The notes under the pieces are model-generated. The model searched no databases and was not told where the DNA came from. It worked only from the letters and a program-made list of their open reading frames with translations. A stretch of DNA of 64,000 nt from Dysgonomonas sp. BGC7 (GTDB taxonomy: Bacteria > Bacteroidota > Bacteroidia > Bacteroidales > Dysgonomonadaceae), in contig NZ_CVRP01000007.1 in the NCBI RefSeq assembly GCF_001261735.1, forward strand, positions 449,711-513,710. Direction: 5' to 3'. Positions 45,285 through 63,691 of this stretch are shown one piece after another (positions within the stretch are counted from its first letter, which is position 1; each line of letters opens with the position of its first letter). The position numbers and the translations under genes are program-made.

Positions 45285-46496
45285 TTAATATATTTCGAAT
45301 AAGCGAGTACGTGCCAACAGGCAGGCGCCAACTACCCCGGCTTTATCTTTTAGTTTCGAAATAGCTATTGTTGAGTCTTTATTTACCAGATTTAAAGAGT
45401 ACTTGCGTATGGCCGTTTTTATGGGTTGCATAATATAATCTTCGGTCATTGATACAGTTCCTCCTATTATAACCATTTCCGGGTTGAATATATTAATCAG
45501 ACTTGCTATTTGTTCTCCCAGTTTTTGGCCTATCTCTTCCACAAGATCTATGCAGAGCACATCTTCTTTATTTATTGCTCCTATTATTTCGTCTAATGTA
45601 ACAGACTCATCTTTTTGTATTTTCTTTGATAGTAGAGATGAGGCGCCATTACGCACCTGTTCGAAAAGGCGGCGGTGCATTGCCAGACCCGATGCCTCTG
45701 TTTCCAAACAGCCCTTTTTACCACAATGGCATAGAATCTCGTTGTCATATATTTTCATATGCCCAAATTCGCCGGCAAAACCGGATTTTCCGGTATAGAC
45801 CTTCCCATCTATTATAATTCCTATAGCTAAGCCCCAACTTACATTTACAAATATGATATTTTTTTCACTATTTACACAGCCCGATAGATATTCTCCATAG
45901 GTCATGGCACGGGTATCATTGTCTATAGTTACTTTATATCCATTCAGTTTTTCACTTAATATTTCGGCTAAAGGTCTTTCTTCGAAATAGAATAGACTAT
46001 AACTATAGCCCGATTCGGGATTTACACGCCCCGATATATTTACATTTACATTTAATATCTTATTCTTGTCTACAGTTTGCTTATCTATAAAGCTTAGAAT
46101 CAGCTCACATAGTTTGTTCATTGCTTCAGGAGTATTCTGCATCTGATATGGTAGACTCATTTTGAGGTCTACCATATCTCCCTTGAAGTTTATGAGCCCT
46201 ATGTTTATAGCAGATTGCTTTACATCTACACCTATGAAGTAGCCCGATTCAGGATTCAGACCGTAAAGATTAGGGTAGCGTCCTCCTGTGGTCTCCAGTT
46301 TTCCATAATCGTTAATATAACCATCTTCACACATCTCAGCAATGAATTTAGTGACAGTTGGAACGCTTAGGTCTAACTCTTTCGACAATTCAGTGATGGT
46401 AGAACTGCCATTCTGGATATAGTAATTAATAATATTTTTCTTTATTAAAGCACTTTTTGTACCTTTTTCTATCTCTTGGAGTAGCTGTATATTCAT
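45285..46496 (-). CDS. ROK-family transcriptional regulator
   Basis: 403 residues. An N-terminal winged helix-turn-helix (about 17-65, 'STITELSKELDLSVPTVTKF') precedes a ROK sugar-kinase-like domain with the zinc site His246, Cys256, Cys258 and Cys263 (GHMKI...CHCGKKGC). The kinase phosphate loop is degenerate ('IGVDVKQSAINIG' lacks the usual DxGGT), so it is probably a sugar-sensing repressor (NagC/Mlc/XylR type) and not an enzyme. It is divergent from the DUF4434-to-GDPD locus and is the only regulator near it, so it likely controls that locus. Confidence 0.9.
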   Translation of the reverse strand: MNIQLLQEIEKGTKSALIKKNIINYYIQNGSSTITELSKELDLSVPTVTKFIAEMCEDGYINDYGKLETTGGRYPNLYGLNPESGYFIGVDVKQSAINIGLINFKGDMVDLKMSLPYQMQNTPEAMNKLCELILSFIDKQTVDKNKILNVNVNISGRVNPESGYSYSLFYFEERPLAEILSEKLNGYKVTIDNDTRAMTYGEYLSGCVNSEKNIIFVNVSWGLAIGIIIDGKVYTGKSGFAGEFGHMKIYDNEILCHCGKKGCLETEASGLAMHRRLFEQVRNGASSLLSKKIQKDESVTLDEIIGAINKEDVLCIDLVEEIGQKLGEQIASLINIFNPEMVIIGGTVSMTEDYIMQPIKTAIRKYSLNLVNKDSTIAISKLKDKAGVVGACLLARTRLFEIY

Positions 46497-46544
46497 GTTT
46501 TTTTTATTTAATGCTACTTTTTAAAATTTATTCAAAAAGTAATA

Positions 46545-46552
46545 CAAATGTA
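46545..46552 (-). promoter_or_regulatory. -7 promoter element for the ROK gene
   Basis: On the minus strand this reads TACATTTG (TAnnTTTG), about 49 nt before the ROK start codon. No -33 TTTG at a standard distance. Confidence 0.45.
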
Positions 46553-46909
46553 AGTAAAAATATTATTAAATAGAGCGTTTTTTTTTATTAGTTGTTTTGT
46601 CTTGTCGTAAATGTTTGATGAGTAATGCTATTTGTATGATTTTGGTTTGTCTACTTGTCAAAGTATTTATAGCTTAAAGCTAATGAATAATGTTTGCTAA
46701 ATAATATTATTTATCAACTATTATTCTGTTTTATAGTGTTTTATGACTGTGTTTTAGTTTCGAGATAGAATGATGCTTGCATTTATCTTTTATATTTTTC
46801 TTTGTTTATTTAATAATCATATGTTTCTGTATTAATTTATTACATATAACTCATATTGTAACTTTAATGTTAAATATCGGCTTATATAATTAAATATTTT
46901 ATTAAATGC

Positions 46910-46940
46910 TTTGTTATTAAAAAATATATTTTCATATTTG
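46910..46940 (+). promoter_or_regulatory. Promoter of the DUF4434-to-GDPD locus
   Basis: TTTG, a 19-nt spacer and CATATTTG, differing from TAnnTTTG by one base. It is the best promoter match in the divergent region on this strand. Confidence 0.55.
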
Positions 46941-47132: not shown

Positions 47133-48236
47133 ATGGAAACCAATAATCGTAGAAATTTCTTAAAGAAGGCCGCTATTGCCGGAGCTTCAGTCGTAGCAAT
47201 GCCCACGGTTGCTGCATATGGTGGGGGGGCACCGGGGGGCAGGCACGACTTGGTGATTGATGAATCTGTCAATAGTAATTTAATAGTGCCTAAAGGGACA
47301 GGGCTTCATATTTCGGCGACCTTTCTTGACGAAATATCACATGATATACCACATCAGAATTGGGGCGAAAAAGAATGGGACTTGGATTTTCGCTATATGA
47401 AGAATATTGGAATTGATACAGTTATAATGATCCGTTCCGGATATCGCAAATTTATTACCTACCCTTCAGAATATCTCCTAAAGAAAGGTTGTTATATGCC
47501 TTCTGTCGATTTGGTAGATATGTATCTTCGATTGGCTACAAAATATAATATGAAATTTTATTTTGGGCTTTACGACTCAGGGGAGTATTGGGATACAGGT
47601 GACTTGTCGCATGAAATAGAGTATAATAAATATGTGATAGATGAAGTCTGGAAAAAATATGGTGAAAAATATAAAAGTTTTGGAGGCTGGTATGTCAGTG
47701 GAGAAATAAGCCGTAAGACAAAGGGGGCTATAAATGCTTTTTATTCCATGGGAAAGCAGTGTAAAGATGTTTCTAATGGGTTACCTACATTTATATCTCC
47801 ATGGATAGATGGGAAGAAAGCGGTTATGGCTGCATCCGGGCAGTTGACAAAATCTGAATCGGTTTCGATACAGGAGCATGAAAAAGAATGGGGTGAGATA
47901 TTTGACGGAATAAAAGGTGTTGTTGATGCATGTGCTTTTCAGGACGGGCAAATTGACTATGACGAATTAGATGCATTCTTCGAAGTGAATAAAAAACTTG
48001 CCGATAAGTATGGGCTTCAATGCTGGACAAATGCAGAAACCTTTGATCGGGATATGCCTATCAAATTTTTCCCTATCAAATTCGATAAACTACGAATGAA
48101 GCTAGAGGCTGCTAAAAGAGCGGGTTATGATAAAGCGATAACATTTGAGTTTTCTCATTTTATGAGCCCTCAATCTGCATACTTGCAAGCAGGGCACTTG
48201 TATGACCGGTATAAAGAATATTTTCAAATAAAATAA
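47133..48236 (+). CDS. Tat-exported DUF4434 protein, putative TIM-barrel hydrolase
   Basis: 367 residues. The N-terminus NNRRNFLKKAAIAGASVVAM is a twin-arginine signal (RRNFLK) followed by a Gly-rich stretch. The mature part resembles DUF4434: 'GTGLHISATFLDEISHDIPH', 'IGIDTVIMIRSGYR', 'KFYFGLYDSGEYWD'. It has beta/alpha-barrel character with two glutamates in typical glycosidase positions, Glu191 (GGWYVSGEIS) and Glu302 (WTNAETFD). Hydrolase activity is an inference; no function is established that I know of. Codons 31-36 are written with G7 and G6 runs, a possible slippage site. It is the first gene of the ROK-linked locus. Confidence 0.75.
   Translation: METNNRRNFLKKAAIAGASVVAMPTVAAYGGGAPGGRHDLVIDESVNSNLIVPKGTGLHISATFLDEISHDIPHQNWGEKEWDLDFRYMKNIGIDTVIMIRSGYRKFITYPSEYLLKKGCYMPSVDLVDMYLRLATKYNMKFYFGLYDSGEYWDTGDLSHEIEYNKYVIDEVWKKYGEKYKSFGGWYVSGEISRKTKGAINAFYSMGKQCKDVSNGLPTFISPWIDGKKAVMAASGQLTKSESVSIQEHEKEWGEIFDGIKGVVDACAFQDGQIDYDELDAFFEVNKKLADKYGLQCWTNAETFDRDMPIKFFPIKFDKLRMKLEAAKRAGYDKAITFEFSHFMSPQSAYLQAGHLYDRYKEYFQIK
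47223..47239 (+). repeat. G7 and G6 homopolymer tracts in the signal region
   Basis: Two G runs (47223-47229 and 47234-47239) separated by CACC lie in codons 31-36 of the DUF4434 gene, encoding Gly-Gly-Gly-Ala-Pro-Gly-Gly. They stand out in AT-rich DNA and could allow slipped-strand frameshifts. Confidence 0.6.
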
Positions 48237-48247
48237 CCTTTCAATTA

Positions 48248-49648
48248 ATGAATTCAGGTGTAAATATAAGCTATATAAGCTTTTTGTCTGTTGTAGCAGC
48301 TCTCGGAGGCTTTCTTTTCGGATACGATACAGCGGTTATATCGGGAACGATAGCGCAGGTTTCTGCCCAGTTTTCGCTCGATGCTTTATCGCAGGGATGG
48401 TATGTTGGTTGTGCACTTGTCGGTTCTATTCTAGGAGTGATGTGTGCCGGCATTTTGAGTGACAAGTTCGGCCGTAAAAAAACTCTTCTGGTAGCAGCAA
48501 TTCTATTTTCTGTTTCTGCACTGGGTTGTGCTTTGGCTTCCGATTTCGATCATCTGGTTGTAGCCCGAATTATAGGAGGAGTTGGTATAGGAGTAGTATC
48601 TATTATTTCTCCACTTTATATTTCGGAAATATCAGTCGCCGAATATAGAGGGCGTCTTGTTTCTCTCTATCAGTTAGCTGTTACAGTTGGCTTTTTGGGA
48701 GCATATCTTGTTAATTATGCGTTGTTGAGTTATTCTGCAAATGGAGCAGAGCAACTGACTACTCCTGTATTGTATCATATTTTTCATAACGAAGTCTGGC
48801 GTAGTATGTTGGGTATGGCAGTAATACCTGCGTTAATATTCTTTATTGTCATATTTTTTATACCTGAAAGCCCTAGATGGCTGATCCTGAAAAAACGGGA
48901 TGCAAAGGCTGAAACTATATTGAGTCATATATATGGATCTGTAGAATCTGCTATCTATGAGATGAATGAAACTAAAAATACAATAGGAGGTGAGACCAAA
49001 TCTAATTGGCGTATCCTGTTGAAGCCGGGCATAAAGAAAGCCGTTGCCATAGGAGTGGCTATTGCTATGCTTGGGCAGTTTATGGGGGTCAATGCAGTCC
49101 TTTATTATGGACCTTCTATTTTCGAGAGTAGCGGCTTGTCAGGCGATGATTCTCTTTTTTATCAGGTAATTGTAGGCCTCGTAAACATGCTGACTACTGT
49201 TTTGGCTATCTTTATTATAGACAAAATCGGGCGAAAGAAGCTTGTATATTATGGTGTTTCGGGTATGATTGTTTCACTTCTTCTTATTGCGTTCTATTTT
49301 GTAAAAGGAACAGATCTGGGGATTCCTAACGTGCTGTTGTTAATTTTCTTTTTAGCCTATATCTTCTTCTGTGCTGTATCTATCTGTGCTGTAATCTGGG
49401 TTCTGCTATCAGAAATGTATCCGATCAAAGTACGAGGCTTGGCCATGTCTATAGCCGGATTCTCCCTTTGGATAGGAACATATCTCATAGGCCAGCTTAC
49501 ACCTTGGTTGTTGCAGAATCTGAAACCTGAAGGAACCTTCATTCTATTTGCCGTTATGTGTGTGCCATATATGCTTATAGTCTGGAAATTGGTGCCTGAG
49601 ACTACAGGTAAATCCTTGGAGGAAATAGAAAAATACTGGGAAACATAA
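48248..49648 (+). CDS. MFS sugar porter
   Basis: 466 residues with 12 predicted membrane helices and the sugar-porter signatures: 'GGFLFGYDTAVISGTI' in helix 1, 'DKFGRKKTLL' in the 2-3 loop, 'PESPRWL' after helix 6 and 'PETTGKSLEEIE' after helix 12. It is a proton symporter of the XylE/GalP type in the inner membrane that takes up a monosaccharide. Within this locus it should import the sugar released in the periplasm. It lies 11 nt after the DUF4434 gene. Confidence 0.93.
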   Translation: MNSGVNISYISFLSVVAALGGFLFGYDTAVISGTIAQVSAQFSLDALSQGWYVGCALVGSILGVMCAGILSDKFGRKKTLLVAAILFSVSALGCALASDFDHLVVARIIGGVGIGVVSIISPLYISEISVAEYRGRLVSLYQLAVTVGFLGAYLVNYALLSYSANGAEQLTTPVLYHIFHNEVWRSMLGMAVIPALIFFIVIFFIPESPRWLILKKRDAKAETILSHIYGSVESAIYEMNETKNTIGGETKSNWRILLKPGIKKAVAIGVAIAMLGQFMGVNAVLYYGPSIFESSGLSGDDSLFYQVIVGLVNMLTTVLAIFIIDKIGRKKLVYYGVSGMIVSLLLIAFYFVKGTDLGIPNVLLLIFFLAYIFFCAVSICAVIWVLLSEMYPIKVRGLAMSIAGFSLWIGTYLIGQLTPWLLQNLKPEGTFILFAVMCVPYMLIVWKLVPETTGKSLEEIEKYWET

Positions 49649-49681: not shown

Positions 49682-50863
49682 ATGGATTTAAAAAAATTAG
49701 AGAAGCAGTACAAATCGGAGCTGCTAGACAATGTTTTGCCCTTTTGGCTCGCAAATTCTCAGGATAAAGAATTTGGAGGATACTTTTCTTGCCTCGATAG
49801 AGACGGCTCTGTATTCGATACGGACAAATTCATCTGGTTGCAAGGGCGCGAAGTTTGGATGTTTTCCTCGATGTATAACAATGTGGAGAAACGGCAGGAG
49901 TGGTTGGATTGTGCTATACAAGGAGGCGAATTTCTGAAAAAATACGGACACGATGGTAATTACAATTGGTATTTTTCTCTCGATAGTAAGGGTAGCCCGC
50001 TTGTAGAACCATATAATATATTTTCATACACCTTTGCCACAATGGCATTCGGGCAACTGAACAAAGCTACCGGAAATGAAGAATATGCAGAAATAGCCCG
50101 TAAAACGTTCAATATTATCCTATCGAAATTAGATAATCCAAAAGGTAAATGGAATAAAATGTACCCAGGTACCCGGGATCTGAAAAATTTTGCATTACCT
50201 ATGATCTTATGCAATCTCGGACTCGAAGTAGAGCATCTGATATCGGAAGATTGTTTGGCTAAGTTAATGGATACATGTATCCATGAAGTTATGGATGTGT
50301 TTTGTCGTCCTGAACTTGATGGACTTATTGTTGAAAATGTAACGACAGACGGACAACTATCCGATACCTTCGATGGCCGCTTAATGAATCCCGGACATGC
50401 TATTGAGGCTATGTGGTTTATAATGGATCTGGGAAAACGTCTCAAAAGACCGCATTTGATAGAAAAGGCTGTTAAAAACACATTGAAAATGCTTGATTAT
50501 GGCTGGGATAAGGAATATGGTGGCATTTTTTATTATATGGATCGCTTAGGACGTCCGCCTCAACAGTTAGAATGGGATCAGAAGCTGTGGTGGGTACACA
50601 TCGAAACGCTTATATCTCTACTTAAAGGCTATAGTCTTACTGGATCGAAAGAGTGTTTAGAGTGGTTTGAAAAGGTTCATGAATATACCTGGACACATTT
50701 TAAAGATCATGAATATCCTGAATGGTACGGGTATCTTAATCGCCGGGGAGAAGTATTACTCTCTCTTAAAGGAGGAAAATGGAAAGGATGTTTTCATGTT
50801 CCACGCGGACTATATCAGTGTTGGAAGGTTTTGGAAGAAATAAACGGAAAAACAGGAATATAA
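49682..50863 (+). CDS. AGE-family sugar 2-epimerase
   Basis: 393 residues, (alpha/alpha)6 barrel. Conserved blocks are 'DREYGGYF'-like 'DKEFGGYFSCLDRDG', 'WLQGREVWMFSSMY', 'RLMNPGHAIEAMWFIM' and 'WWVHIETLISLLKGY', with the catalytic histidines of N-acylglucosamine 2-epimerases. The family interconverts GlcNAc/ManNAc, glucose/mannose or cellobiose-type sugars at C2; sequence by eye does not decide among them. No signal peptide, so it acts in the cytosol on the sugar imported by the adjacent porter. The next gene starts 2 nt after the stop. Confidence 0.9.
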   Translation: MDLKKLEKQYKSELLDNVLPFWLANSQDKEFGGYFSCLDRDGSVFDTDKFIWLQGREVWMFSSMYNNVEKRQEWLDCAIQGGEFLKKYGHDGNYNWYFSLDSKGSPLVEPYNIFSYTFATMAFGQLNKATGNEEYAEIARKTFNIILSKLDNPKGKWNKMYPGTRDLKNFALPMILCNLGLEVEHLISEDCLAKLMDTCIHEVMDVFCRPELDGLIVENVTTDGQLSDTFDGRLMNPGHAIEAMWFIMDLGKRLKRPHLIEKAVKNTLKMLDYGWDKEYGGIFYYMDRLGRPPQQLEWDQKLWWVHIETLISLLKGYSLTGSKECLEWFEKVHEYTWTHFKDHEYPEWYGYLNRRGEVLLSLKGGKWKGCFHVPRGLYQCWKVLEEINGKTGI

Positions 50864-52782: not shown

Positions 52783-53868
52783 ATGAAAAATATAGTGTAC
52801 ATACTATTAATAGCCTTATTATATTTTCCGGAAGTAAATTCTCAGATAGTATATCATAATGCAGACGAATTTCCTCTTTATGGAAAAGCAACAGTTCATA
52901 CCGAATCCCGTTATGAGCGTTTGCCCGATTCTCTGAAAGATACATTGCGTAAACCTTTATGGAATCTAGGGAAAAATACTGCCGGACTGGCTGTGAGATT
53001 TCGGTCAAATTCGACTACAATTGCTGCAAAGTGGAACGTATTGTTCAACAATGTAATGGATCATATGACTTTTGTCAATACGAAAGGACTAGATCTTTAC
53101 AGCCTAAAGGATGGAGCATGGAGGTTTGTCAATGTAGCCCGCCCTTTCGGGCATGAAAATAGTGCTGTCATTATTGCTAATATGGAACCAATAGATAGGG
53201 AATATCTTCTTTATCTACCTCTTTATGACGGGATTACTTCCTTGTCTATCGGTGTCGATTCAATAAGCTACTTGTCTCAGCCGCTTATAGACTATCCTGT
53301 TAGAGAAAAACCCTTAGTTTTTTATGGGACAAGCATACTACAAGGAGGCTGTGCATCTCGTCCCGGTATGGCTCATACCAATATTATATCCCGTCGTTTG
53401 AATCGTGAAATAATCAATCTTGGATTTAGCGGGAATGCTTTTCTCGATCTGGAAATTGCTCATATAATGGCTGAAGTAGATGCCGGAGCATTTATTCTCG
53501 ATTTTGTGCCAAATGCTTCTGTGCAGCAAATGGACGAGAAAGGAGTAGATTTCTATAGAATTATACGAGAAAAACATTCTTCGACGCCTATTCTGTTTAT
53601 TGAAGATCCGGTCTTTACACATATGATATTCGATCGGAAAGTGGCAAAAGAAGTGGAAGCAAAAAATAAAGCTCTTCATGCTCTATTCGATAAGCTAAAA
53701 GGTCAGGGAGAAAACAATATTCATCTGGTGCCTTCTGCCAATATGATAGGACATGATGGTGAAGCCACTATTGATGCTATACATTTTACCGATCTCGGTT
53801 TTGTCAGATATGCCGATATGCTTTGTCCTATTATTCAGAATTTAATAAAATATTCAGATAGTAAATAG
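52783..53868 (+). CDS. SGNH-family hydrolase (putative carbohydrate esterase)
   Basis: 361 residues with a Sec signal peptide (MKNIVYILLIALLYFPEVNS). An N-terminal SGNH_hydro_N beta domain (about 22-175, with the 'GLDLYSLKDGAWRFV' signature) precedes the SGNH domain. Block I is 'FYGTSILQGGCASRPG' (Ser nucleophile), block II 'INLGFSGNAFLD', block III 'DFVPNAS', block V 'DAIHFTDLGF' (Asp/His). In polysaccharide loci this group typically removes acetyl or other ester groups. It lies 9 nt after the oxidoreductase, in the same transcript. Confidence 0.88.
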   Translation: MKNIVYILLIALLYFPEVNSQIVYHNADEFPLYGKATVHTESRYERLPDSLKDTLRKPLWNLGKNTAGLAVRFRSNSTTIAAKWNVLFNNVMDHMTFVNTKGLDLYSLKDGAWRFVNVARPFGHENSAVIIANMEPIDREYLLYLPLYDGITSLSIGVDSISYLSQPLIDYPVREKPLVFYGTSILQGGCASRPGMAHTNIISRRLNREIINLGFSGNAFLDLEIAHIMAEVDAGAFILDFVPNASVQQMDEKGVDFYRIIREKHSSTPILFIEDPVFTHMIFDRKVAKEVEAKNKALHALFDKLKGQGENNIHLVPSANMIGHDGEATIDAIHFTDLGFVRYADMLCPIIQNLIKYSDSK

Positions 53869-54101
53869 CTTGTTCTTATTAATCTTTTGCAAAGACCCCA
53901 AAAAGTAATACTGTTCTTTCGTTAATTCAGGTTTTGCTTTTGACAACTTATTGGTAAATAAAATACTGTAATATAAACGTAATAGATTATTGCCTATGAA
54001 AAACTTAAATTGAGCTTACCTTTTTCTTCTATTCAGGTCGAACGATTTGTTCGGGATGAAAATTTATTAAATCAGTTAATCTAAAAATAATTACTAAACT
54101 A

Positions 54102-57100
54102 ATGATGTATAATTTTCAAGTAAAAGCGTTCTTCTATAGATCGAGAATACGAATAGTCAGTGTAATAATATTATGTTTTGTTGCAACAATAGATACAGTA
54201 GCAAACGATTATTATTTACAGCCTGTTGATTTTTCTCTAAAGACTACCGATCAGATTGGTAGGAAGAAAGTTACCGGAAAAGTTTTAGATGAGTTTGGAG
54301 ATCCTATCCCTAGTGCTTCCGTTCTAGTTGCAGGTAGTCCTCGGGGAGTTTTTACAGATATAGATGGTAGCTTCGAAATAGAAGTTTCAGATAATGACAA
54401 ATTAGAATTCTCTTTTTTGGGAATGGAAACACAAGTGATATCGGTTGGAACTAAAAAGCAATTTCTTATAAACCTTAAGCCTAAAGCAGCGGAGTTGGAC
54501 GAGGTGACGGTAGTTGCTTATGGAAAACAAAGGAAAGAAAGTATAATCGGTGCAATAAATACAGTAACTACAGATAAATTGAAATTGCCTGTTGCTAAGC
54601 TAAGTTCTGGTTTGGCAGGACAATTGGCCGGTATAGTTGTTATGCAGCGTTCGGGAGAGCCGGGAGCCGGAGCCGACTTTTGGATTCGGGGAGTTAATAC
54701 TTTCGGAGCCAATAATAAGCCTTTGGTTTTAGTTGATGGGATAGAACGTGATCTGGATTTAGTTGATGCAGAAGATATAGCATCATTCTCTATATTGAAA
54801 GATGCAACAGCTACGGCATTGTACGGTGTTCGCGGTGCTAATGGTATTGTTCTGATAACTACCAAGCGAGGAACTGAGTCTGCTCCAAAAGTGAGTGCTA
54901 GAGTCGAATATGGATTCTCCAGTCCCGTACGTTTACCAAAACTGGCTTCAGCTTCACAGTGGATAGATTATTATAATGACATAACATTGGAAGCTTCGGG
55001 TAAATTGGCGATACAACCGGAACAACGTGCAGCTTACTTAAATGGTTCCGATCCTGATCTGTATCCAAATGTAGACTGGATGAGTACTATCTTCAAAGAT
55101 ATATCTAACAGTACACGCGTGAATGTTAATGTTACAGGTGGTTCTCCTAAAGTTAGATATTATGTAGGCGGTTCTTATTATACAGAAGGAAGTATATTCA
55201 ATGTTGGCGATACTGATCGGTATGACGCCTCAATGAAGTATAATAGGTTTAATTTCCGATCCAATATTGATATAAATATAACATCTTCTACCGAGTTGGG
55301 CTTGTCTCTATCTACTCAGTATGAGACAAAAAATCGTCCCGGATCATCACTGTCCACATTATATGCTTATACTATAATAACACCTCCTTTATCTATTCCA
55401 ACAGTTTATTCCGACGGAACAATATCTCGTCCTGTTGTTGGTATCAATCCTTACAATGCATTGAATGGTACCGGATACTCTCAGGATTTTGCAAACAATG
55501 CTCAGTCCCTGTTTTCTTTGACACAGGACTTTTCAAATATTATTACTCCCGGATTAAAAGCAAACGTTAAATATTCGTGGGATGCATATAACGGATCAAC
55601 ATTGGACAGAACAATAGCTCCTTCTACTTACTTTGCCACGGGCAGAGATGACAATGGAGATCTTATTCTTGTGAAAAATAATGATGGTAGCGACTATATG
55701 ACTTTATCGAGGTCAAATAGCGGATCGCGAACAACCAATTTCGAAGCTTCATTAAATTACGATCAGGTTTTTGGACAAGATCATCGGGTAGGAGGGCTGT
55801 TCCTATTCAATATGAGAAGTCGTACCAATAATTTCCCCGCTAGTTATATCTATGCATTCCCATATAGGAATACAGGTATAGCAGGACGTGCAACTTATTC
55901 GTATGGAGATCGTTATTTTACTGAGTTTAATTTCGGATATAACGGGTCTGAAAACTTTTCGCCGAAAAAGCGTTTTGGATTTTTCCCTTCTTTTGCTTTA
56001 GGATATTTAATTAGCAACGAATCTTATTGGAATTCATTACGTTCGCTAGTTCATTTGCTGAAGCTTAAAGGGTCGTATGGAGAAATAGGTAATGATCAGA
56101 TTGGAGGAGACCGACGCTTTGCTTTTAACTCGGAAATGAACAGTAATGCCAGCGGATATATTTTTGGTACAAATCCCGGCTCAGGTTATATAAGTGGTAT
56201 TGCTACAGGTGTTCCTGGAAACGAATATGTTGCATGGGAAAAAGCGAAGAAAGGAAATATTGGTTTAGAAGTTGGCTTTTTTAATAAATTGAACCTACAG
56301 GTTGATTATTTCGATGAACGCAGATCGGGAATCTATATTCAACAAGAAAGTGTACCTAGTGTTGTTGGCCAGAATGTGACTCAATACGTTAATCTGGGAA
56401 AAATGAAAAATCAGGGTTTCGATGTGTCTTTAGAGTATGAACAGCGCCTGAATGACTGGTATTTTTCTGCACGAGCCAACTTTAATTATAATAAGAATAA
56501 GGTATTGTATGACGATAAGCCAACCCCTATTTGGCCATATCTGAGTGCAACCGGTTATCCTTACAATCAGCAGAGAGGCCTTATTTCGTTAGGCTTGTTC
56601 GAATCGGAACAAGATATAGCTGATAGCCCTAAACATACATTCGGTAATGTTCGTCCCGGAGATATCAAGTATAAAGATATCAATGGAGATAATGTTATTG
56701 ATGCAAATGATATGGTGGCAATCGGACATACAAATATTCCTGAAATCAACTATGGTTTTGGTGTGAGTGTAGGTTGGAAGGGTTTCGACCTATCCCTTTT
56801 CTTTCAGGGCGTAGGACGTGTAACTCAAATAATAGGAGGTAGTGCATTCTATGGTGCATCTGATAATATATTAAATACTGGGCAGATCTATAAAGATGTG
56901 GCAGAAAACAGATGGTCGTTAGACAATCCTGATCCAAATGCTCTTTACCCCCGCTTGTCAATGAGTAAGGTTGAGAATAATTTGCAAGCATCTACTTTTT
57001 GGCTACGCGACATGAGTTTTATCAGGCTGAAAAATACAGAACTTGGATATACTATTCCCAAAAGCATATCAAGAAAACTACGCCTCTCGTCGGTTCGTAT

Positions 57101-57230
57101 TTATACACAAGGTGTCAATCTGTTGACCTTTAGTAAATTCAAACTGTGGGATCCTGAATTGGCTTCCAGCTATGGGAATGTTTATCCTCAGATGAAGTCT
57201 TTGACTTTGGGCCTAAATGTTAATTTCTAA
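54102..57230 (+). CDS. SusC/RagA-family TonB-dependent outer-membrane transporter
   Basis: 1042 residues. Signal region followed by a carboxypeptidase-D regulatory-like domain at about 56-126 ('VTGKVLDEFGDPIPSASVLV') and a TonB-box-like DEVTVVAYG (133-141). The plug has 'LVLVDGIERDLDLVDAEDIA' and 'ALYGVRGANGIVLITTKRGT'; the barrel ends 'LGLNVNF'. It imports the locus substrate with the SusD-like protein encoded 11 nt downstream. A 233-bp spacer separates it from the SGNH gene; that spacer contains a short inverted repeat CGAAC-N5-GTTCG (54039-54053) but no standard TAnnTTTG element. Confidence 0.95.
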   Translation: MMYNFQVKAFFYRSRIRIVSVIILCFVATIDTVANDYYLQPVDFSLKTTDQIGRKKVTGKVLDEFGDPIPSASVLVAGSPRGVFTDIDGSFEIEVSDNDKLEFSFLGMETQVISVGTKKQFLINLKPKAAELDEVTVVAYGKQRKESIIGAINTVTTDKLKLPVAKLSSGLAGQLAGIVVMQRSGEPGAGADFWIRGVNTFGANNKPLVLVDGIERDLDLVDAEDIASFSILKDATATALYGVRGANGIVLITTKRGTESAPKVSARVEYGFSSPVRLPKLASASQWIDYYNDITLEASGKLAIQPEQRAAYLNGSDPDLYPNVDWMSTIFKDISNSTRVNVNVTGGSPKVRYYVGGSYYTEGSIFNVGDTDRYDASMKYNRFNFRSNIDINITSSTELGLSLSTQYETKNRPGSSLSTLYAYTIITPPLSIPTVYSDGTISRPVVGINPYNALNGTGYSQDFANNAQSLFSLTQDFSNIITPGLKANVKYSWDAYNGSTLDRTIAPSTYFATGRDDNGDLILVKNNDGSDYMTLSRSNSGSRTTNFEASLNYDQVFGQDHRVGGLFLFNMRSRTNNFPASYIYAFPYRNTGIAGRATYSYGDRYFTEFNFGYNGSENFSPKKRFGFFPSFALGYLISNESYWNSLRSLVHLLKLKGSYGEIGNDQIGGDRRFAFNSEMNSNASGYIFGTNPGSGYISGIATGVPGNEYVAWEKAKKGNIGLEVGFFNKLNLQVDYFDERRSGIYIQQESVPSVVGQNVTQYVNLGKMKNQGFDVSLEYEQRLNDWYFSARANFNYNKNKVLYDDKPTPIWPYLSATGYPYNQQRGLISLGLFESEQDIADSPKHTFGNVRPGDIKYKDINGDNVIDANDMVAIGHTNIPEINYGFGVSVGWKGFDLSLFFQGVGRVTQIIGGSAFYGASDNILNTGQIYKDVAENRWSLDNPDPNALYPRLSMSKVENNLQASTFWLRDMSFIRLKNTELGYTIPKSISRKLRLSSVRIYTQGVNLLTFSKFKLWDPELASSYGNVYPQMKSLTLGLNVNF

Positions 57231-57241
57231 AATTTACAGTT

Positions 57242-59116
57242 ATGAAAAAATTAAAAATATCATCAATATTCTTACTTCTATCACTCTTCTTCTCTTCTTG
57301 TAGCGATTATTTGGAAGTAACTTTACTTGACCAGTTGACTCGTGATGAGACATTTAGCAAAAGAGTGTCTACTGAGCAGTATCTGGCCCATGTATATAGC
57401 TTTTTGCCACGTGAGGCGGAATACCTCGCAGAAGGAAGTTCTGTCCCTCGTAGCGATGAAGCTTTATTCTCTTGGTATCAGTGGGTTGATTATCTTATAT
57501 TCAATACAGGCTCTTGGGGACCAACAACTAAAGCATTTTATATTTGGGAAGATAAATATAAGGGAATTAATCAGGCTTCTATTTTCATAGAGCATGTAGA
57601 TGAATGTCTCGAGATAGATGCAGATACCAGAAATATAATGAAGGCAGAAGCGCGTTTTTTGAGAGCTTTCTTCTACTTCGAACTGTTTAGACAATATGGG
57701 CCTGTATATATTTGGGGCGATCGTGCTCCTGATTCTCTCATCAAGGCTGAAGATATAGACAGGCATACTGTCGACGAAAATGTCAACTTTATGGTAGAAG
57801 AGTTTGATAAAGCGATTGCAGTTCTACCTACCGGAGTTGATGATAAAACCAAATGGGCAGGGCGTATAACCAAAGGAGCCGCAATGGCTGCCAAGTCAAG
57901 ATTACTTCTTTATGCAGCTAGTCCATTATTCAATGGATGTGATCTTTATAAGGGTAAAATGGTTAACCTGTATGGCAACTACTTGTTTCCTCAAACATCT
58001 GACCCTCAGAAATGGGAAAAAGCAGCCACTGCCGCAAAAGATATTATTGACCTGAATGTTTATGAATTATATGAAAATACTTCAGAGTCTGATCCTATGC
58101 AGAAGGCTATTAAATCTTATCAAGGTGTTATATTTGAAGAATGGAACGATGAGATCATCCTAGGTGCTTGGGCACGTAACCCTATTAATACAGGTTTGGG
58201 CGGTATCGGTTATTATTTTCATTCCCGATTTTTGCCACCTAAGGTAATGAAGAATGCTTATGGAGGTTTTTGTCCTTCCCTTAAACTTGTAGATACTTAT
58301 CCTATGGCTGCTTCAGGAAGATATCCTGTTACCGGATATGATAGTAATGGTAATCCTATTATCGACTCTAAGTCGGGTTTTAATAATACAGGATTTACTG
58401 ATGGATATACCCATCCAATTGAGAATTTTGCAGTTATTAAAGCTCATAATAGCAGTGTTGGACGAGATGCCCGCTATTATGCATCAGTATTTGCAAATGG
58501 CTTTTATTGGATAAATCAATACTCGGGTAAAAAGCTCGTTACATTTTATGATGGTGGAACTTCTCCTTTCTTGGGTAGTGGTGGCGACTGCGTAAAAGTT
58601 GGTTTCTTGTGGCGCCGTATGCTCGATCCAGCATTAAATACGGATAATGGTAGCTGGGGAAATGTATTTTGGCCTTATTTCCGTTTGGCTGAGATTTACC
58701 TTAACTACGCGGAAGCATGTAACGAGAAACCACAAAGAGACGAAGCTGAGGCTCTGAAGTATATAAATAAAGTTAGAGCTCGTGCCGGATTGAATAAATT
58801 GGAAGAAGCCTATCCGGAAGTGATAAACAATCAGCCCTTACTAAAAGAACTTATACAGAAAGAACGTATGGTTGAGTTAGCCTTCGAAGGACATAGATAC
58901 TATGATGCACGTCGTTGGATGATTGCAGAGAAAGAGTTTACAGGACCTAATTATACTTTGAATCTGTCTGCTACTAAGTATGAAGAATCGTGGGACAGGA
59001 CTACGAAAGTATGGATTGGTGGAGATCGTAAATTTGAACCAAAACATTATTTCTTCCCTATCAATCAGGAGCAGTTGAACGAGATGAGAAACATTACTCA
59101 AAACTACGGGTGGTAA
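57242..59116 (+). CDS. SusD/RagB-family outer-membrane lipoprotein
   Basis: 624 residues, longer than the other SusD here. Lipoprotein signal with lipobox FSSC (Cys20) followed by 'SDYLEVTLLDQLT'. Typical SusD blocks: 'YKGINQASIFIEHVDECLEI', 'MKAEARFLRAFFYFELFRQY', 'RLAEIYLNYAEACNEKPQRD' and 'QKERMVELAFEGHRYYDARR'. It is a surface glycan-binding partner of the SusC immediately upstream. The extra length lies in the middle (about 270-430), where the ligand-binding loops are in known SusD structures. Confidence 0.94.
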   Translation: MKKLKISSIFLLLSLFFSSCSDYLEVTLLDQLTRDETFSKRVSTEQYLAHVYSFLPREAEYLAEGSSVPRSDEALFSWYQWVDYLIFNTGSWGPTTKAFYIWEDKYKGINQASIFIEHVDECLEIDADTRNIMKAEARFLRAFFYFELFRQYGPVYIWGDRAPDSLIKAEDIDRHTVDENVNFMVEEFDKAIAVLPTGVDDKTKWAGRITKGAAMAAKSRLLLYAASPLFNGCDLYKGKMVNLYGNYLFPQTSDPQKWEKAATAAKDIIDLNVYELYENTSESDPMQKAIKSYQGVIFEEWNDEIILGAWARNPINTGLGGIGYYFHSRFLPPKVMKNAYGGFCPSLKLVDTYPMAASGRYPVTGYDSNGNPIIDSKSGFNNTGFTDGYTHPIENFAVIKAHNSSVGRDARYYASVFANGFYWINQYSGKKLVTFYDGGTSPFLGSGGDCVKVGFLWRRMLDPALNTDNGSWGNVFWPYFRLAEIYLNYAEACNEKPQRDEAEALKYINKVRARAGLNKLEEAYPEVINNQPLLKELIQKERMVELAFEGHRYYDARRWMIAEKEFTGPNYTLNLSATKYEESWDRTTKVWIGGDRKFEPKHYFFPINQEQLNEMRNITQNYGW

Positions 59117-59125: not shown

Positions 59126-60511
59126 ATGAGAATACTTATGAAAAAGAATATTTATCAGATATTAATTGCTATTGTTTTTATCATGGTTACAGGATGTGAT
59201 GATGATAAAGAACGCTTAATAGTAGACGATCAAGTTGGTTTTCTGAAGCCTTCTTATACAGAAGCAGAAGTTTTTCTTGGTGCAGGTCTTCCATATAAAT
59301 TATATATTGTAAAAAGTGGAATAGGCAAACAAAGTGCTAAGGTTACTGTCTCGGTTAATGAAACCCTTTTGGAAGAATATAATACAAATAATAATAAGTC
59401 TTATCAGCTATTACCGGCAGATTGTTATTCTATTGTACAAAATCAACTGGTTTTTGATAACTCTGACTATAGTAAATATATTGAAGTAAAATGGGATGAA
59501 GAAAAGTTAGCATTGCTGCAACCTTCTTCAGCTTCCTATGCTTTACCCATTCAGATGACTGCCGAGGGTAATACTATTAATATTGCTGATGATCGTCAAA
59601 TGACAGTAGTAGTGCCTACCCTAAAACAGCCGTATATACAGATGGCTGATGCAGGTTTATATTCTCCGGCATTTATGCCTACTATAAAAGGATTAAACGA
59701 GGAAGACATATTTGTTAAAGTTAGTATAAATTATCCTAGTGAATCGAAAGTAAGCTATCAGATAGAAGTTGATGAGCAATTGCTTAATAATTATAATACA
59801 ACTCACGGTACTACATACAAAATGTTACCTGAAGATGCCTATACGTTAAACGGCTCTTGGTCTATCCCGATGAATCTTAATGAAGATTATTTCAAATTTA
59901 CGTTTCACAAAAAGGCACTGATCCCTGACGAAAATACATATCTGTTTGGTAGTTATGTACTTCCCATTAAGATTACATCAGTATCTAAATATGGTGTTGA
60001 TCCGGATGCTTCATATATACTATATCCGATTAGTTTCCAGCCAGATAAAATAGGTAAAACAGATTGGGCGGTTCTTGAATGGAATACTTCATCGAAAGAA
60101 GATGAGATCGCATGGCTTGCAGCTTTAGATTGGGGACCAGAAAAAACAATAGACAATAATGTTGCTACTTTCTGGGGTTCTAAATGGACTACACCAAAAC
60201 CTTTTCCTTATTACTTTATATATGATATGGGAAAGGAGTATGCTTTATTCAGATTAGGATATGATAATCCGACAGGAGCAGACGCATGGAGAGGAAATGC
60301 AAAAGCCGGATATGTAGAAGTCAGTACCGATAAAGAAAATTGGAGTCGTATTGCAAATTGGACAGCACCGACCGAAGCCACTCGCAGTATCTCTTTTGAT
60401 GTACCTAAAACAACAGCACGGTATATTCGCTTTGTGATAACGGATGCGTTTAGTGTATATCTTGGAGGTGCCCAGATGAATATCTCCGAATTTAATGCTT
60501 GGGGAATGTAA
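59126..60511 (+). CDS. Surface lipoprotein with DUF1735 repeats and a discoidin-like domain
   Basis: 461 residues. Lipobox VTGC (Cys24) followed by Asp-Asp-Asp-Lys-Glu, an acidic export signal for surface lipoproteins in Bacteroidota. Two DUF1735-type beta domains follow ('VTVSVNETLLEEYNTNNNKS', 'YQIEVDEQLLNNYNTTHGTT', each ending in a LLP.D.Y motif). A C-terminal F5/8-type (discoidin-like) domain comes last ('DNNVATFWGSKWTTPKPFPY', 'VEVSTDKENWSRIANW'). Such proteins next to SusD act as surface glycan-binding proteins. A Met four codons later (59138) is an equally plausible start. A hairpin terminator follows. Confidence 0.85.
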   Translation: MRILMKKNIYQILIAIVFIMVTGCDDDKERLIVDDQVGFLKPSYTEAEVFLGAGLPYKLYIVKSGIGKQSAKVTVSVNETLLEEYNTNNNKSYQLLPADCYSIVQNQLVFDNSDYSKYIEVKWDEEKLALLQPSSASYALPIQMTAEGNTINIADDRQMTVVVPTLKQPYIQMADAGLYSPAFMPTIKGLNEEDIFVKVSINYPSESKVSYQIEVDEQLLNNYNTTHGTTYKMLPEDAYTLNGSWSIPMNLNEDYFKFTFHKKALIPDENTYLFGSYVLPIKITSVSKYGVDPDASYILYPISFQPDKIGKTDWAVLEWNTSSKEDEIAWLAALDWGPEKTIDNNVATFWGSKWTTPKPFPYYFIYDMGKEYALFRLGYDNPTGADAWRGNAKAGYVEVSTDKENWSRIANWTAPTEATRSISFDVPKTTARYIRFVITDAFSVYLGGAQMNISEFNAWGM

Positions 60512-60603: not shown

Positions 60604-62406
60604 ATGAACAACTTAACTACTTTCTTTAAAGTCTTTCCATACAATATTTTATTATTCGTATGTTTAGTTTCTGGTACTAATGGTGTCTATTCTCAATCGG
60701 CACCAAAAGAATATATGACAACTGATATACAGGATCTTGCTCTTATCTATCAGGGTGGAGTTCATCGCTTGGATTGGACGGTCGATCAGATACAGCCTTA
60801 TGTTGTACATCAATATGCAGACGGCCGTAAAGATTGGCTTTTCGATGGTTTTCTTTTTCTTGAGTTCAAAGATGGGAAAGGCTATGGCTACGGATCGCGT
60901 TATGATAAGAATGATGCAAGAAAAACAGAATGGCTATGGCTGTTGGATCGTATTTTCGAAGAGGGTAAATCCTTGTCTGCGTTAGATCAGTGTATTGAGA
61001 ATCAAATAAAAGAAATAGGAAAACCTGATTTTAAGCATAAGGTTGTAATAGGGTTGCCGGAAGCGCTTCCAGGACAGAAAGATTGGGGCGAAATAAATGG
61101 AAAGAAGATGGATTTCTCGAAAGAAGAAGATCAGATACAGGCTACTTATTGGTATATCGACTTGTTGATGAAGCGTTTTAAAAAGGAAAAGTATAAACAT
61201 CTTGATCTTGCCGGTTTCTATTGGGTATCCGAAGATGTCGAAACTTGTAAAGATTTAACTATTCCTTTAGGTAAATATATCCGTTCTTTAGACAAGAAGT
61301 TTTATTGGATACCATACTGGCAGGCTAAAGGGTTTGAAAGGTGGAAAGAACTTGGCTTTGATATTGCATATCAGCAGCCTAACCATTTCTTTAGTGCATC
61401 AGTTCCTGACAAGAGGCTTGAGGATGCGTGTATGTCTGCACATGAGCATAATATGGGTATGGAGTTCGAATTTGATGAGAAGGCATTGTACGATGCTAAA
61501 GAGTCTTCGTATAATCGTCTAAAAGCTTATATTGACTATTTTGAAAAGAATAATGTCTTCGAAGAGTCTGCAATTACTTACTATAGTGGATTTTCCGGGT
61601 TTCTTGATATGGCTAAATCTACCAATCCGAAAGATCATGCTATAATGGATCGGTTAGCAAAGCTTATTATAGATCGTCGTGGCAGATATAAGAATCTTTT
61701 AGAAAACAAAACTAAAGTGATAGCTCATCGAGGATTTTGGAAAACTCAGGGGTCTGCTCAAAACTCTATAGCTGCACTGGTAAAAGCCGATTCTATTCGT
61801 TGTTATGGTACCGAGTTTGATGTGTGGTTGGCTTCGGATGATAAACTTGTACTTAATCATGATGACGTATATGACGGACACAAAATAGAAACAACTTCAT
61901 CAGAAGTGCTTCGTACACTCCGACTCTCTAATGGAGAAACGATGCCTATGTTGGAAGCATTTCTTGATAGGGCGAAAAAATTGAAGATAAAATTGATTCT
62001 AGAACTAAAACCCCATAGTAGTCCCGAGCGTGAAACAAAAGCCGTAGAACTTATTTTGAATATGGTGAAGAAGAAGGGGTTGACAAAACGTGTCGAATAT
62101 ATTTCTTTTTCCCGTCATGCTATCAAAGAGTTTGTGAGATTAGCCCCATCAAATACTCCAGTTCTGTATTTGGGACAGGATATATCTCCCAAAGAATTAT
62201 TTGAAATGAAAGCGACAGGAGCCGATTATAATTATTGGGCATATCACAAAAATCCCCTGTGGCTACAGGAACTGAAAGACTTGAAAATGATATCTAATGT
62301 ATGGACTGTAAATAATCCGCAAGAGATGTTATGGTGCATAAGAAGGGGCTTTGATTTGTTGACTACCGATGAGCCGGTCATATTTCAGAGATTAAAAAAG
62401 AAATGA
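60604..62406 (+). CDS. DUF4855 - glycerophosphodiester phosphodiesterase fusion
   Basis: 600 residues. Signal peptide ends near VYSQ (about residue 31). Residues about 40-360 resemble DUF4855 ('DLALIYQGGVHRLDWTVDQI', 'LDLAGFYWVSEDVETCKDLT', 'IAYQQPNHFFS'), a barrel-like domain with Glu210 and Glu287/Glu289 as candidate acids. Residues about 370-600 are a complete GDPD domain: His375-Arg376, Glu404-x-Asp406, His419-Asp420 and Glu467-x-Lys469. GDPD enzymes split glycerophosphodiesters, so a substrate with a phosphodiester-linked group is suggested. I place the start at MNNLTTFF; upstream in-frame codons run through the terminator hairpin. Confidence 0.85.
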   Translation: MNNLTTFFKVFPYNILLFVCLVSGTNGVYSQSAPKEYMTTDIQDLALIYQGGVHRLDWTVDQIQPYVVHQYADGRKDWLFDGFLFLEFKDGKGYGYGSRYDKNDARKTEWLWLLDRIFEEGKSLSALDQCIENQIKEIGKPDFKHKVVIGLPEALPGQKDWGEINGKKMDFSKEEDQIQATYWYIDLLMKRFKKEKYKHLDLAGFYWVSEDVETCKDLTIPLGKYIRSLDKKFYWIPYWQAKGFERWKELGFDIAYQQPNHFFSASVPDKRLEDACMSAHEHNMGMEFEFDEKALYDAKESSYNRLKAYIDYFEKNNVFEESAITYYSGFSGFLDMAKSTNPKDHAIMDRLAKLIIDRRGRYKNLLENKTKVIAHRGFWKTQGSAQNSIAALVKADSIRCYGTEFDVWLASDDKLVLNHDDVYDGHKIETTSSEVLRTLRLSNGETMPMLEAFLDRAKKLKIKLILELKPHSSPERETKAVELILNMVKKKGLTKRVEYISFSRHAIKEFVRLAPSNTPVLYLGQDISPKELFEMKATGADYNYWAYHKNPLWLQELKDLKMISNVWTVNNPQEMLWCIRRGFDLLTTDEPVIFQRLKKK

Positions 62407-62434
62407 AAATTATATTGTGTTTTAAATAAGTATT

Positions 62435-63691
62435 ATGACAAGAAAAGTTATTGGCATATTTTTACTTGTAGGATGTTGTCTGCTAGGATGTGCCAGTAAA
62501 CATCCTTATATAGAAGATTTACCCAATGAAATACCTATCTCGGATGATGGGGAAGATCAAGGTGTTACCGATCAGTTAAGGGTTAAGATAGTTGGAGATC
62601 AGTTGTATATATCTGCTAAGCTGAATGATGATAAGGATATTCTTTACTGGTTCAGAAAGTGTATGTTTAATGAAATATTTACTTTTTACAGAGTAGGTGT
62701 TATTGATAACAACATGAAACTACCGACTAATCTTCCTGACGCAACCCCTTCTCTTACTCTCAATTTAGCATACAGCGATAATATCGGTCCATTTAATATA
62801 ACCGGCTTTGGCTGGGCCGGAGGTAATCATGCCTACATAGACAATGTAACTAAAACGGCATCTACCGAGAATGTTGCTATCTATTTGGATGATAAAATAG
62901 CGACAAAAGATACATTGGCATTAGTTGATTATGTTCATGTAAAAGTCGTAAATCATATCATGAATCCTGCTAAACCTCAAATAGTAGAAGGAAAAACGAA
63001 GTTGAATGAATTACTATGTACAGAGAGTGTAGATTATTATATTCGGAAGAATAATATTCAAGTATCTGTTACTCATAGTTTCGATAACGAGAATCCTGTA
63101 GAAGTTCAAATGTATTATGGTATGCAATCTATGTTTGAAAAAGAGACACATACAATGACTCCCAATGGAAAATATTCAGATTGGACTCTCCAGTCAGAAG
63201 TGGATACTTTCCTGAAAAAAGATTACCCGTTTTTTAGAAAATATGTAGAGAAAAACTCACAAGCATATCAGTCTTCTTTTTTGATAGACACTGGTTTGGG
63301 TAGTCACGATGCTATTGCAGACGATGACATTATTTTTATAGGTAATTCTAATGGAAAATCTTATCATAAAATTATATCGCATAAACAGTATAAAAGAGGA
63401 GATGTAACTGCTTGGCAAGGAGTCTATACTTGGTTTATAAAGCCTATTGCCGATGATGCTGATATTCTCTGTTACGAAGGAGTAATCAATGGGAAGAATA
63501 CGATCTTTATCGATTGTAAAAAGGCTGTTGATAAAGAAATAACATTACCGGATAAGTATGTAGGTAAATTATTTTCTTTTTATGAAAAAACTCCGAATTC
63601 AGATATTACTGTTACAGAAGGAAAAGAGTTGAATAAGACAATGAAAATATCTTCTTCTGGTGCCTCTGGCTGTATCTTGATATTCAACTGA
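62435..63691 (+). CDS. Lipoprotein of unknown function, last gene of the locus
   Basis: 418 residues with a lipoprotein signal (MTRKVIGIFLLVGCCLLGC, Cys19) and the following motif-poor, beta-rich sequence: 'LRVKIVGDQLYISAKLNDDK', 'FNITGFGWAGGNHAYIDNVT', 'IQVSVTHSFDNENPVEVQMY', 'YEGVINGKNTIFIDCKKAVD'. No family recognised. The large beta content and a Trp/Tyr-rich core could fit a carbohydrate-binding or beta-sandwich hydrolase-associated domain. It starts 28 nt after the GDPD fusion gene and is followed by a hairpin, so it belongs to the same transcript. Confidence 0.7.
   Translation: MTRKVIGIFLLVGCCLLGCASKHPYIEDLPNEIPISDDGEDQGVTDQLRVKIVGDQLYISAKLNDDKDILYWFRKCMFNEIFTFYRVGVIDNNMKLPTNLPDATPSLTLNLAYSDNIGPFNITGFGWAGGNHAYIDNVTKTASTENVAIYLDDKIATKDTLALVDYVHVKVVNHIMNPAKPQIVEGKTKLNELLCTESVDYYIRKNNIQVSVTHSFDNENPVEVQMYYGMQSMFEKETHTMTPNGKYSDWTLQSEVDTFLKKDYPFFRKYVEKNSQAYQSSFLIDTGLGSHDAIADDDIIFIGNSNGKSYHKIISHKQYKRGDVTAWQGVYTWFIKPIADDADILCYEGVINGKNTIFIDCKKAVDKEITLPDKYVGKLFSFYEKTPNSDITVTEGKELNKTMKISSSGASGCILIFN

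What the first reader, a model, noticed from the sequence alone, without database searches (positions are those of the whole stretch)
45285..63691. ROK-linked SusCD locus with no classical glycoside hydrolase: DUF4434, DUF4855-GDPD, FAD oxidoreductase, AGE epimerase
Seen directly: a divergent ROK regulator followed by about 16.5 kb of same-strand genes for a Tat-exported DUF4434 protein, sugar porter, AGE epimerase, FAD lipoprotein, SGNH hydrolase, SusC, SusD, surface-binding lipoprotein, DUF4855-GDPD fusion and an unknown lipoprotein. Family knowledge: SusCD loci normally carry recognisable GH or PL genes and HTCS, SusR or ECF regulators; here neither is seen. Inference: the locus captures an unusual glycoconjugate that is oxidised or de-esterified, cleaved at a phosphodiester and glycosidic bond, imported as monosaccharide and epimerised at C2.
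Basis: partly seen in the sequence, partly recalled or inferred. Interest (0 to 1): 0.75.

Follow-up and report, generated by a model that had tools for sequence, protein, structure and literature searches.

The report
Amino-sugar glycan locus, enzymes unproven
This is a real, conserved set of bacterial genes that probably captures and dismantles an unidentified sugar polymer containing N-acetyl amino sugars; two of its protein families look like enzymes that still lack a known activity.

Summary
None matches a catalogued GH or PL family. The locus is not an oddity. Its SusC, SusD, DUF4855, GDPD and last lipoprotein are 75, 78, 70, 76 and 57% identical to one Bacteroides faecalis locus. AGE lies in 11 of 22 DUF4855 loci and 10 of 20 DUF4434 loci, against 1 of 39 control SusD loci. 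Some Bacteroides relatives carry a GH89 alpha-N-acetylglucosaminidase near DUF4855; the window genome has none.

Best reading: a GlcNAc/ManNAc-glycan utilisation locus. DUF4434 and DUF4855 stand in for missing glycosidases, GDPD cuts a phosphodiester, the porter imports an amino sugar, AGE interconverts ManNAc and GlcNAc, ROK senses the product. Only the AGE call rests on a curated model; the rest is inference. Against it: DUF4434 and DUF4855 mostly occur apart in the window's family (4 of 22 and 0 of 20 stretches hold both), and GDPD is in 10 of 61 distinct DUF4855 loci but 0 of 22 of that family. The B. [quoted passage not shown]

The parts
45285..46496 (-). ROK-family transcription regulator (HTH + ROK), divergent
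   Evidence: Pfam ROK 5e-55, HTH_24 2e-10; 76-95% identical to ROK proteins beside DUF4434 or its FAD neighbour in L166, L172, L197, L199, L202, L212
46515..46541 (.). 8-bp inverted repeat with 11-bp spacer in front of ROK; candidate operator
   Evidence: not found in the six other ROK-DUF4434 intergenic regions examined, so unproven
46533..46545 (+). CAAAAAGTAATAC, 13-mer shared with the SusC upstream region
   Evidence: one of two exact copies in the window; a third place has one mismatch
47133..48236 (+). Tat-exported DUF4434 protein, candidate TIM-barrel glycosidase
   Evidence: PF14488 7e-86; PDB 4h41 3.6e-196; E191 and E302 invariant in 13 of 13 aligned members
48248..49648 (+). sugar porter (MFS)
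   Evidence: Pfam Sugar_tr 7e-113; TIGR00879 above cut-off; an MFS relative in 19 of 20 DUF4434 loci
49682..50863 (+). N-acyl-D-glucosamine 2-epimerase (AGE)
   Evidence: NF052547 equivalog 715.6 bits, cut-off 600; the only AGE-family match in the genome
50866..52773 (+). FAD-dependent oxidoreductase lipoprotein
   Evidence: PF12831 4e-95; start corrected by eye
52783..53868 (+). SGNH hydrolase (GxDLY + Lipase_GDSL_3), probable esterase
   Evidence: PDB 4lhs relative
53899..53911 (+). second exact copy of CAAAAAGTAATAC, upstream of SusC
54102..57230 (+). SusC (TonB-dependent outer-membrane transporter)
   Evidence: Pfam plug, barrel, CarbopepD_reg_2; 75% identical to L009 SusC
57242..59116 (+). 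SusD
   Evidence: PF07980 2e-53; 78% identical to L009 SusD
59126..60511 (+). surface glycan-binding lipoprotein (BT_3987-like N-terminal domain + F5/8C)
   Evidence: PDB 3hnm relative of the C-terminal part; binding role inferred
60604..62406 (+). DUF4855-GDPD fusion, probably exported
   Evidence: PF16147 9e-104, PF03009 6e-16; GDPD half matches PDB 3no3; start corrected by eye
62435..63691 (+). lipoprotein of a family without a Pfam model
   Evidence: no Pfam or PDB match; relatives of 34-57% identity in L009, L010, L011, L016, L022, L024, L025 and further ones in L209-L211; one relative, L016 by the alignment, carries an Exo_endo_phos domain

Best explanation
A SusCD utilisation locus for a glycan built from N-acetylated hexosamines, orthologous to an uncharacterised Bacteroides locus. 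SusC, SusD and the surface lipoprotein capture fragments. In the periplasm or at the surface, the SGNH esterase removes acyl groups, DUF4855-GDPD cuts a glycosidic bond and a phosphodiester in one polypeptide, and Tat-exported DUF4434 makes the last cut that frees an amino sugar. The porter encoded next to it imports that sugar. AGE interconverts ManNAc and GlcNAc so that it enters GlcNAc catabolism. ROK senses an amino sugar and derepresses the locus. Shown: gene order, families, conservation, AGE equivalog call. Inferred: all catalytic roles of DUF4434, DUF4855, GDPD, FAD and SGNH, the order of steps and the ligand of ROK.
For: AGE passes its curated equivalog cut-off and is enriched: 11 of 22 DUF4855 loci and 10 of 20 DUF4434 loci against 1 of 39 control SusD loci. 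An MFS relative follows DUF4434 in 19 of 20 loci; the exception (L179) ends at a contig end. ROK in 8 of 20 against 0 of 39, SGNH 7 of 20 against 0 of 39. GH89 lies in 4 of 26 named and 4 of 9 Bacteroides-genus DUF4855 loci, which points to alpha-GlcNAc. DUF5009 occurs in L010, L011, L029, L165, L183, L203 and L213; the one copy tested, L011, resembles glucosamine N-acetyltransferases (NagX 7e-9, far below its cut-off; HGSNAT the only PDB hit, E 0.024). SusC, SusD, DUF4855, GDPD and the last lipoprotein are 57-78% identical to L009. Invariant E191/E302 in DUF4434 (13 sequences) and E199/E276/E278 in DUF4855 (22 sequences, numbered from base 60637) would suit a retaining TIM-barrel enzyme.
Against: No structure could be predicted (tool off), and profile-profile comparison of DUF4434 with DUF4855 was not significant (probability 0.6%). 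In the window's family the two halves mostly occur apart: DUF4434 in 4 of 22 DUF4855 loci, DUF4855 in 0 of 20 DUF4434 loci, ROK in 0 of 22 and porter in 2 of 22 DUF4855 loci. GDPD is absent from 22 of 22 DUF4855 loci of that family and 5 of 5 other order-level loci, and Exo_endo_phos-type proteins are commoner in the controls (2 of 39) than in the family's DUF4855 loci (0 of 22). The window genome has no GH89, so its substrate may differ from that of Bacteroides. Its AGE may also, or mainly, serve a sialic-acid-type locus elsewhere in the genome, which lacks an AGE. No expression data for this organism.
Confidence: 0.55

Rival explanations
1. The locus takes up a host glycan with terminal alpha-GlcNAc (gastric-type mucin or heparosan-like) and no phosphodiester. 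GDPD is only an accessory here and DUF4855 or DUF4434 replaces GH89.
For: GH89 in orthologous Bacteroides loci. The B. thetaiotaomicron counterpart's SusC BT0439 was found in culture-supernatant proteomes on galactooligosaccharides and human milk oligosaccharides, and the paper calls it implicated in host-glycan degradation (PMC5238430 passages). DUF5009 of L011 resembles HGSNAT/NagX, whose human form acts before alpha-GlcNAc removal (role recalled).
Against: Would not explain GDPD fused to DUF4855 with HRG, ExD and H motif residues in place (motif recalled), nor NAGPA in related loci L018, L019, L066, L076, L175, L179, L183, nor AGE if only GlcNAc is released. Another GH89 paralogue, Bt3590, rather than Bt0438, is the one reported as highly active on heparosan (PMC8225759 passages).
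Confidence: 0.2
2. AGE here mainly serves sialic-acid breakdown. The genome's sialidase-like, NanM and NanA-like locus on contig 19 makes ManNAc, and the window locus supplies its only epimerase.
For: L144 holds a sialidase-like BNR protein, NanM, an MFS protein, a NanA-like DHDPS-family protein and a SusC relative, with no AGE. The window gene is the only AGE-family match in the genome. Bacteroidota use NanA and then an epimerase making GlcNAc (PMC3969230 passages).
Against: AGE is packed between the porter and the FAD gene of the window locus and is enriched beside DUF4434 and DUF4855 across genomes. The NanA-like protein is below both NanA cut-offs.
Confidence: 0.15
3. DUF4855-GDPD releases glycerol phosphate from lipids or wall polymers to obtain phosphate; the sugar genes are a side route.
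For: GDPD family; calcineurin-like phosphoesterases recur near DUF4434 (7 of 20 against 1 of 39).
Against: None of the eleven genes is a phosphate transporter or phosphate regulator. SusCD, sugar porter, AGE and ROK point to sugar.
Confidence: 0.05

Closest known systems
B. thetaiotaomicron BT0435-BT0443 region (orphan locus)
   Same: BT0438 (alpha-N-acetylglucosaminidase), SusC/SusD BT0439-40 and DUF4855 protein BT0442 are listed in PMC10434189 (passages). [quoted passage not shown] That BT0435-37 are DUF4434, porter and AGE, and that 4h41 is BT_0435, is recalled.
   Different: The window locus has no GH89; FAD and SGNH lie between AGE and SusC. The B. thetaiotaomicron sequence itself was not compared.
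Bacteroides faecalis locus L009 and uncultured Bacteroides L010/L011
   Same: AGE (L009, L011; the L010 stretch starts after it), SusC, SusD, SGBP, DUF4855-GDPD fusion and last lipoprotein in the same order; SusC 72-75%, SusD 74-78% identical
   Different: L010/L011 have GH89 before SusC; L009 has a 157-aa GHL10-like ORF there (27.2 bits, just below cut-off) and SGNH and CE2 after the last lipoprotein
Bacteroidota sialic-acid (nan) loci
   Same: an epimerase that makes GlcNAc from ManNAc and a SusC/SusD-type outer-membrane pair (PMC3969230 passages and abstract start)
   Different: no NanA, sialidase or NanM in the window locus
PDB 7ww4/7wwc, 479-480 aa, deposited as beta-1,3(4)-glucanase
   Same: related GDPD half (E about 1e-48)
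   Different: the window fuses GDPD to DUF4855; the GDPD-3keto fusions of L009 and L212 (491 aa) may be the nearer match (inference from length and order only)

Membership tests
SusCD polysaccharide utilisation locus | adjacent SusC and SusD genes | tested here: met
   11-bp gap
SusCD polysaccharide utilisation locus | recognised GH or PL gene in the locus | tested here: not met
   none among the eleven proteins; usual but not essential, so I keep only the SusC/SusD-locus label and not a polysaccharide claim
Orphan BT0435-BT0443-type locus | AGE, SusC, SusD, SGBP, DUF4855 and last lipoprotein in the same order, with high identity to Bacteroides orthologues | tested here: met
   (against L009-L011; B. 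thetaiotaomicron itself not compared)
Orphan BT0435-BT0443-type locus | GH89 between AGE and SusC | tested here: not met
   none in window or genome; L009 also lacks it there, so it varies within the group
AGE (N-acylglucosamine 2-epimerase) | curated family score | tested here: met
   NF052547 715.6 against 600
AGE (N-acylglucosamine 2-epimerase) | activity on ManNAc/GlcNAc | not testable with these tools
   needs an enzyme assay
GDPD phosphodiesterase | family score and HRG, ExD, H motif residues | tested here: met
   PF03009 59.8 bits against 23.6; residues visible; motif recalled
Retaining TIM-barrel glycosidase (DUF4434, DUF4855) | two invariant carboxylates | tested here: met
   consistent with but not specific to glycosidases
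Retaining TIM-barrel glycosidase (DUF4434, DUF4855) | (beta/alpha)8 fold | tested here: inconclusive
   beyond 4h41, DUF4434 has only weak profile hits (4zrx 'F5/8 type C domain protein' 0.02, 6t5o 'Glyco_hydro_42M domain' 0.066); no usable hit for DUF4855; hhalign not significant
nan (sialic-acid) locus | NanA lyase in the locus | tested here: not met
   no DHDPS-family protein among the eleven

The most novel reading that the evidence does not exclude
DUF4434 and DUF4855 are two unrecognised glycosidase families, and the locus is a dedicated system for phosphodiester-linked cell-wall glycopolymers of other bacteria (teichoic-acid linkage units or ManNAc-containing secondary wall polymers). 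GDPD or NAGPA opens the phosphodiester, GH89 or its substitute removes alpha-GlcNAc, DUF4434 frees ManNAc, and AGE channels it.
Probability: 0.15. Interest if true: 0.8.

Novelty: new variant of a known kind. Interest (0 to 1): 0.5.

Why it matters
The related B. [quoted passage not shown] The recurrent partners (AGE, ROK, GH89, GDPD, NAGPA, a glucosamine N-acetyltransferase relative) narrow the search to N-acetylhexosamine glycans, perhaps phosphodiester-linked, and name two protein families to assay. In the library searched, the name DUF4434 is in no paper and DUF4855 in one, in a gene table; work under locus tags or other names, or in journals not held, would be missed.

Tried and rejected
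Profile-profile comparison did not link DUF4434 with DUF4855 (0.6%); DUF4434 with GHL10 gave 31%, against 4.7% for the unrelated AGE. PDB profile searches with DUF4855 and with the last lipoprotein found nothing usable. A shared ROK operator: the inverted repeat near 46515 was not found in six other ROK-DUF4434 intergenic regions. The 13-mer shared with SusC is exact at two places in the window; a 17-base pattern fitted to both copies hit only those two in the genome, with 1 hit for the backwards control, so it is suggestive only. Searches for papers holding AGE with GH89 and polysaccharide utilisation in Bacteroides, phosphodiester glycosidase with Bacteroid-, and teichoic acid with glycerophosphodiester and polysaccharide utilisation found none; searches for BT0435-BT0447 locus tags gave the papers cited and mostly unrelated salmon papers. 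Considered and set aside: GPI anchors or plant glycosylinositol phosphoceramides as substrate (would fit a GlcN acetyltransferase, GH89 and a phosphodiesterase but not AGE).

Limits of the tallies: the 39 control SusD loci were picked by me from the best-scoring rows listed, not at random; all come from genomes that carry DUF4855, whereas many DUF4434 loci do not. One control (L130) overlaps a DUF4434 test locus (L177) and supplies the single AGE and DUF4434 of the controls. The first tally used a lower threshold than the second: FAD 8 then 3 of 22, 2 then 0 of 39; GHL10 3 then 2 of 22; Metallophos 2 then 1 of 22; ROK 1 then 0 of 39 controls. In one search SusC was in 17 and SusD in 14 of 22 DUF4855 loci. 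Loci are not independent: L082/L083, L212/L213 and L214-L216 are alike, and L015 and L070 are the same record, so the 62 DUF4855 loci are 61. The 28 loci were found partly by GDPD peptides, which biases GDPD counts; two of them (L031, L036) carry no DUF4855 and were dropped. Many loci are cut by contig ends.
Full report
WHAT IS THERE. The eleventh, 62435-63691, matches no Pfam or PDB entry but has relatives of 34-57% identity in seven loci. Start sites for the FAD lipoprotein (50866) and DUF4855-GDPD (60604) are corrected by eye. The ten co-directional genes are tightly packed apart from 233 bp before SusC and 92 bp before DUF4855. No catalogued GH or PL model matches.

WHO ELSE HAS IT. One scan of named genomes with the DUF4855-GDPD protein returned 28 loci, 26 with DUF4855. 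The B. faecalis locus L009 has AGE, SusC, SusD, SGBP, DUF4855-GDPD and the last lipoprotein in the same order, with SusC 75%, SusD 78%, DUF4855 70% and GDPD 76% identity. I take this as an orthologous locus. Uncultured Bacteroides L011 has a GH89 between AGE and SusC, and L010, whose stretch starts there, a GH89 before SusC (NAGLU 7e-138 for L011). In the same two genomes ROK, FAD, DUF4434 and porter lie together on another contig (L199, L200). L212, from a genome of the B. faecalis genus, has ROK divergent from FAD, DUF4434, porter, AGE, a GDPD-3keto fusion and DUF4855 in one stretch. Counting the reference genome itself each time, DUF4855 was found in 5 of 295 order-level genomes, 21 of 101 genomes of the window's family and 12 of 119 of the B. 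faecalis genus. One locus of the window's family (L070) is identical to L015, titled uncultured Proteiniphilum, so the family is probably Dysgonomonadaceae.

IS THE CO-OCCURRENCE MORE THAN CHANCE. I compared 22 DUF4855 loci and 20 DUF4434 loci of the window's family with 39 SusD loci taken from genomes that carry DUF4855. With the stricter thresholds, DUF4855 loci, DUF4434 loci, controls: AGE 11/22, 10/20, 1/39; porter 2/22, 19/20, 1/39; ROK 0/22, 8/20, 0/39; SGNH 1/22, 7/20, 0/39; FAD 3/22, 5/20, 0/39; NAGPA 2/22, 3/20, 0/39; calcineurin-like 1/22, 7/20, 1/39; GDPD 0/22, 0/20, 0/39; GH89 0/22, 0/20, 0/39; DUF4434 4/22 and 1/39; DUF4855 0/20. So DUF4434-porter is a firm pair that often comes with AGE and ROK, and AGE is also tied to DUF4855. 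But the two halves joined in the window are mostly apart in its family, and GDPD is not tied to DUF4855 there. Elsewhere GDPD goes with DUF4855 in 6 of 26 named loci (two of these, L024 and L025, on the opposite strand about 6.5 kb away) and 4 of 9 Bacteroides-genus loci, but 0 of 5 other order-level loci. The loci are partly related to each other, so I give counts and no probabilities.

CHEMISTRY HINTED AT. AGE passes its equivalog cut-off and is the genome's only member. GH89 lies in 4 of 26 and 4 of 9 loci. DUF5009 near several of these loci resembles, in the one copy tested, glucosamine N-acetyltransferases. NAGPA, the phosphodiester glycosidase family, is directly after DUF4855 in L018 and L019. 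One relative of the last lipoprotein is fused to an Exo_endo_phos domain, although such proteins are not enriched overall (0 of 22 against 2 of 39). Together these favour an N-acetylhexosamine glycan, with a phosphodiester in at least some loci. DUF4434 is strongly conserved (76-90% identity to nine close members) with E191 and E302 invariant even in three members of 23-26% identity. DUF4855 has invariant E199, E276 and E278 in 22 sequences. I read these as acid/base and nucleophile candidates; the fold is untested here.

WHAT THE WINDOW GENOME LACKS OR ADDS. No GH89. A sialic-acid-type locus on contig 19 (sialidase-like, NanM, NanA-like, SusC relative, plus GDPD and calcineurin-like genes) has no AGE, so the window's AGE may serve it too. 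This is the main rival for the AGE step.

LITERATURE. I read passages only. PMC10434189 lists BT0438 (alpha-N-acetylglucosaminidase), BT0439-40 and BT0442 (DUF4855) among downregulated genes in its iron study. [quoted passage not shown] PMC5238430 found SusC BT0439 on galactooligosaccharides and human milk oligosaccharides, not on lactose. PMC8225759 cloned Bt0438, but the heparosan activity it reports is of Bt3590. PMC3969230 describes NanA and then an epimerase in Bacteroidota. I did not compare the window with B. thetaiotaomicron sequence itself; that link is by annotation and recall.

VERDICT. A real, conserved locus; a GH89-less variant of an orphan Bacteroides locus, with two candidate enzyme families.

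Noticed in passing
G000 contig 7, 529-548.5 kb (L217), about 25 kb beyond the window: A second SusC locus with sigma/anti-sigma-like genes (by eye), a NAGPA phosphodiester glycosidase, an SGNH relative, alkaline phosphatase and a GFO/IDH/MocA oxidoreductase: another candidate phosphodiester-glycan locus in the same genome.
   Followed up: partly
G000 contig 19, 83-103 kb (L144): Sialic-acid-type locus with GDPD and calcineurin-like genes but no AGE.
   Followed up: partly
39025-45175: A separate SusC-SusD-thioredoxin-like gene set directly upstream on the same strand.
   Followed up: no
L009:17641-19116 and L212:10158-11633: GDPD fused to a 3-keto-disaccharide hydrolase domain, directly beside DUF4855.
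   Followed up: partly
L012, L013, L018, L019: Four of 22 scanned DUF4855 proteins match Glyco_hydro_16 (best 9e-8); from the alignment I read these as the C-terminal tails of these four loci, not catalytic by eye.
   Followed up: no
L083:11267-12775: A GH28 gene beside DUF4434, DUF4855 and AGE, so the substrate may vary between loci.
   Followed up: no
63859-63933: tRNA-Met (CAT) on the minus strand just after the locus.
   Followed up: no
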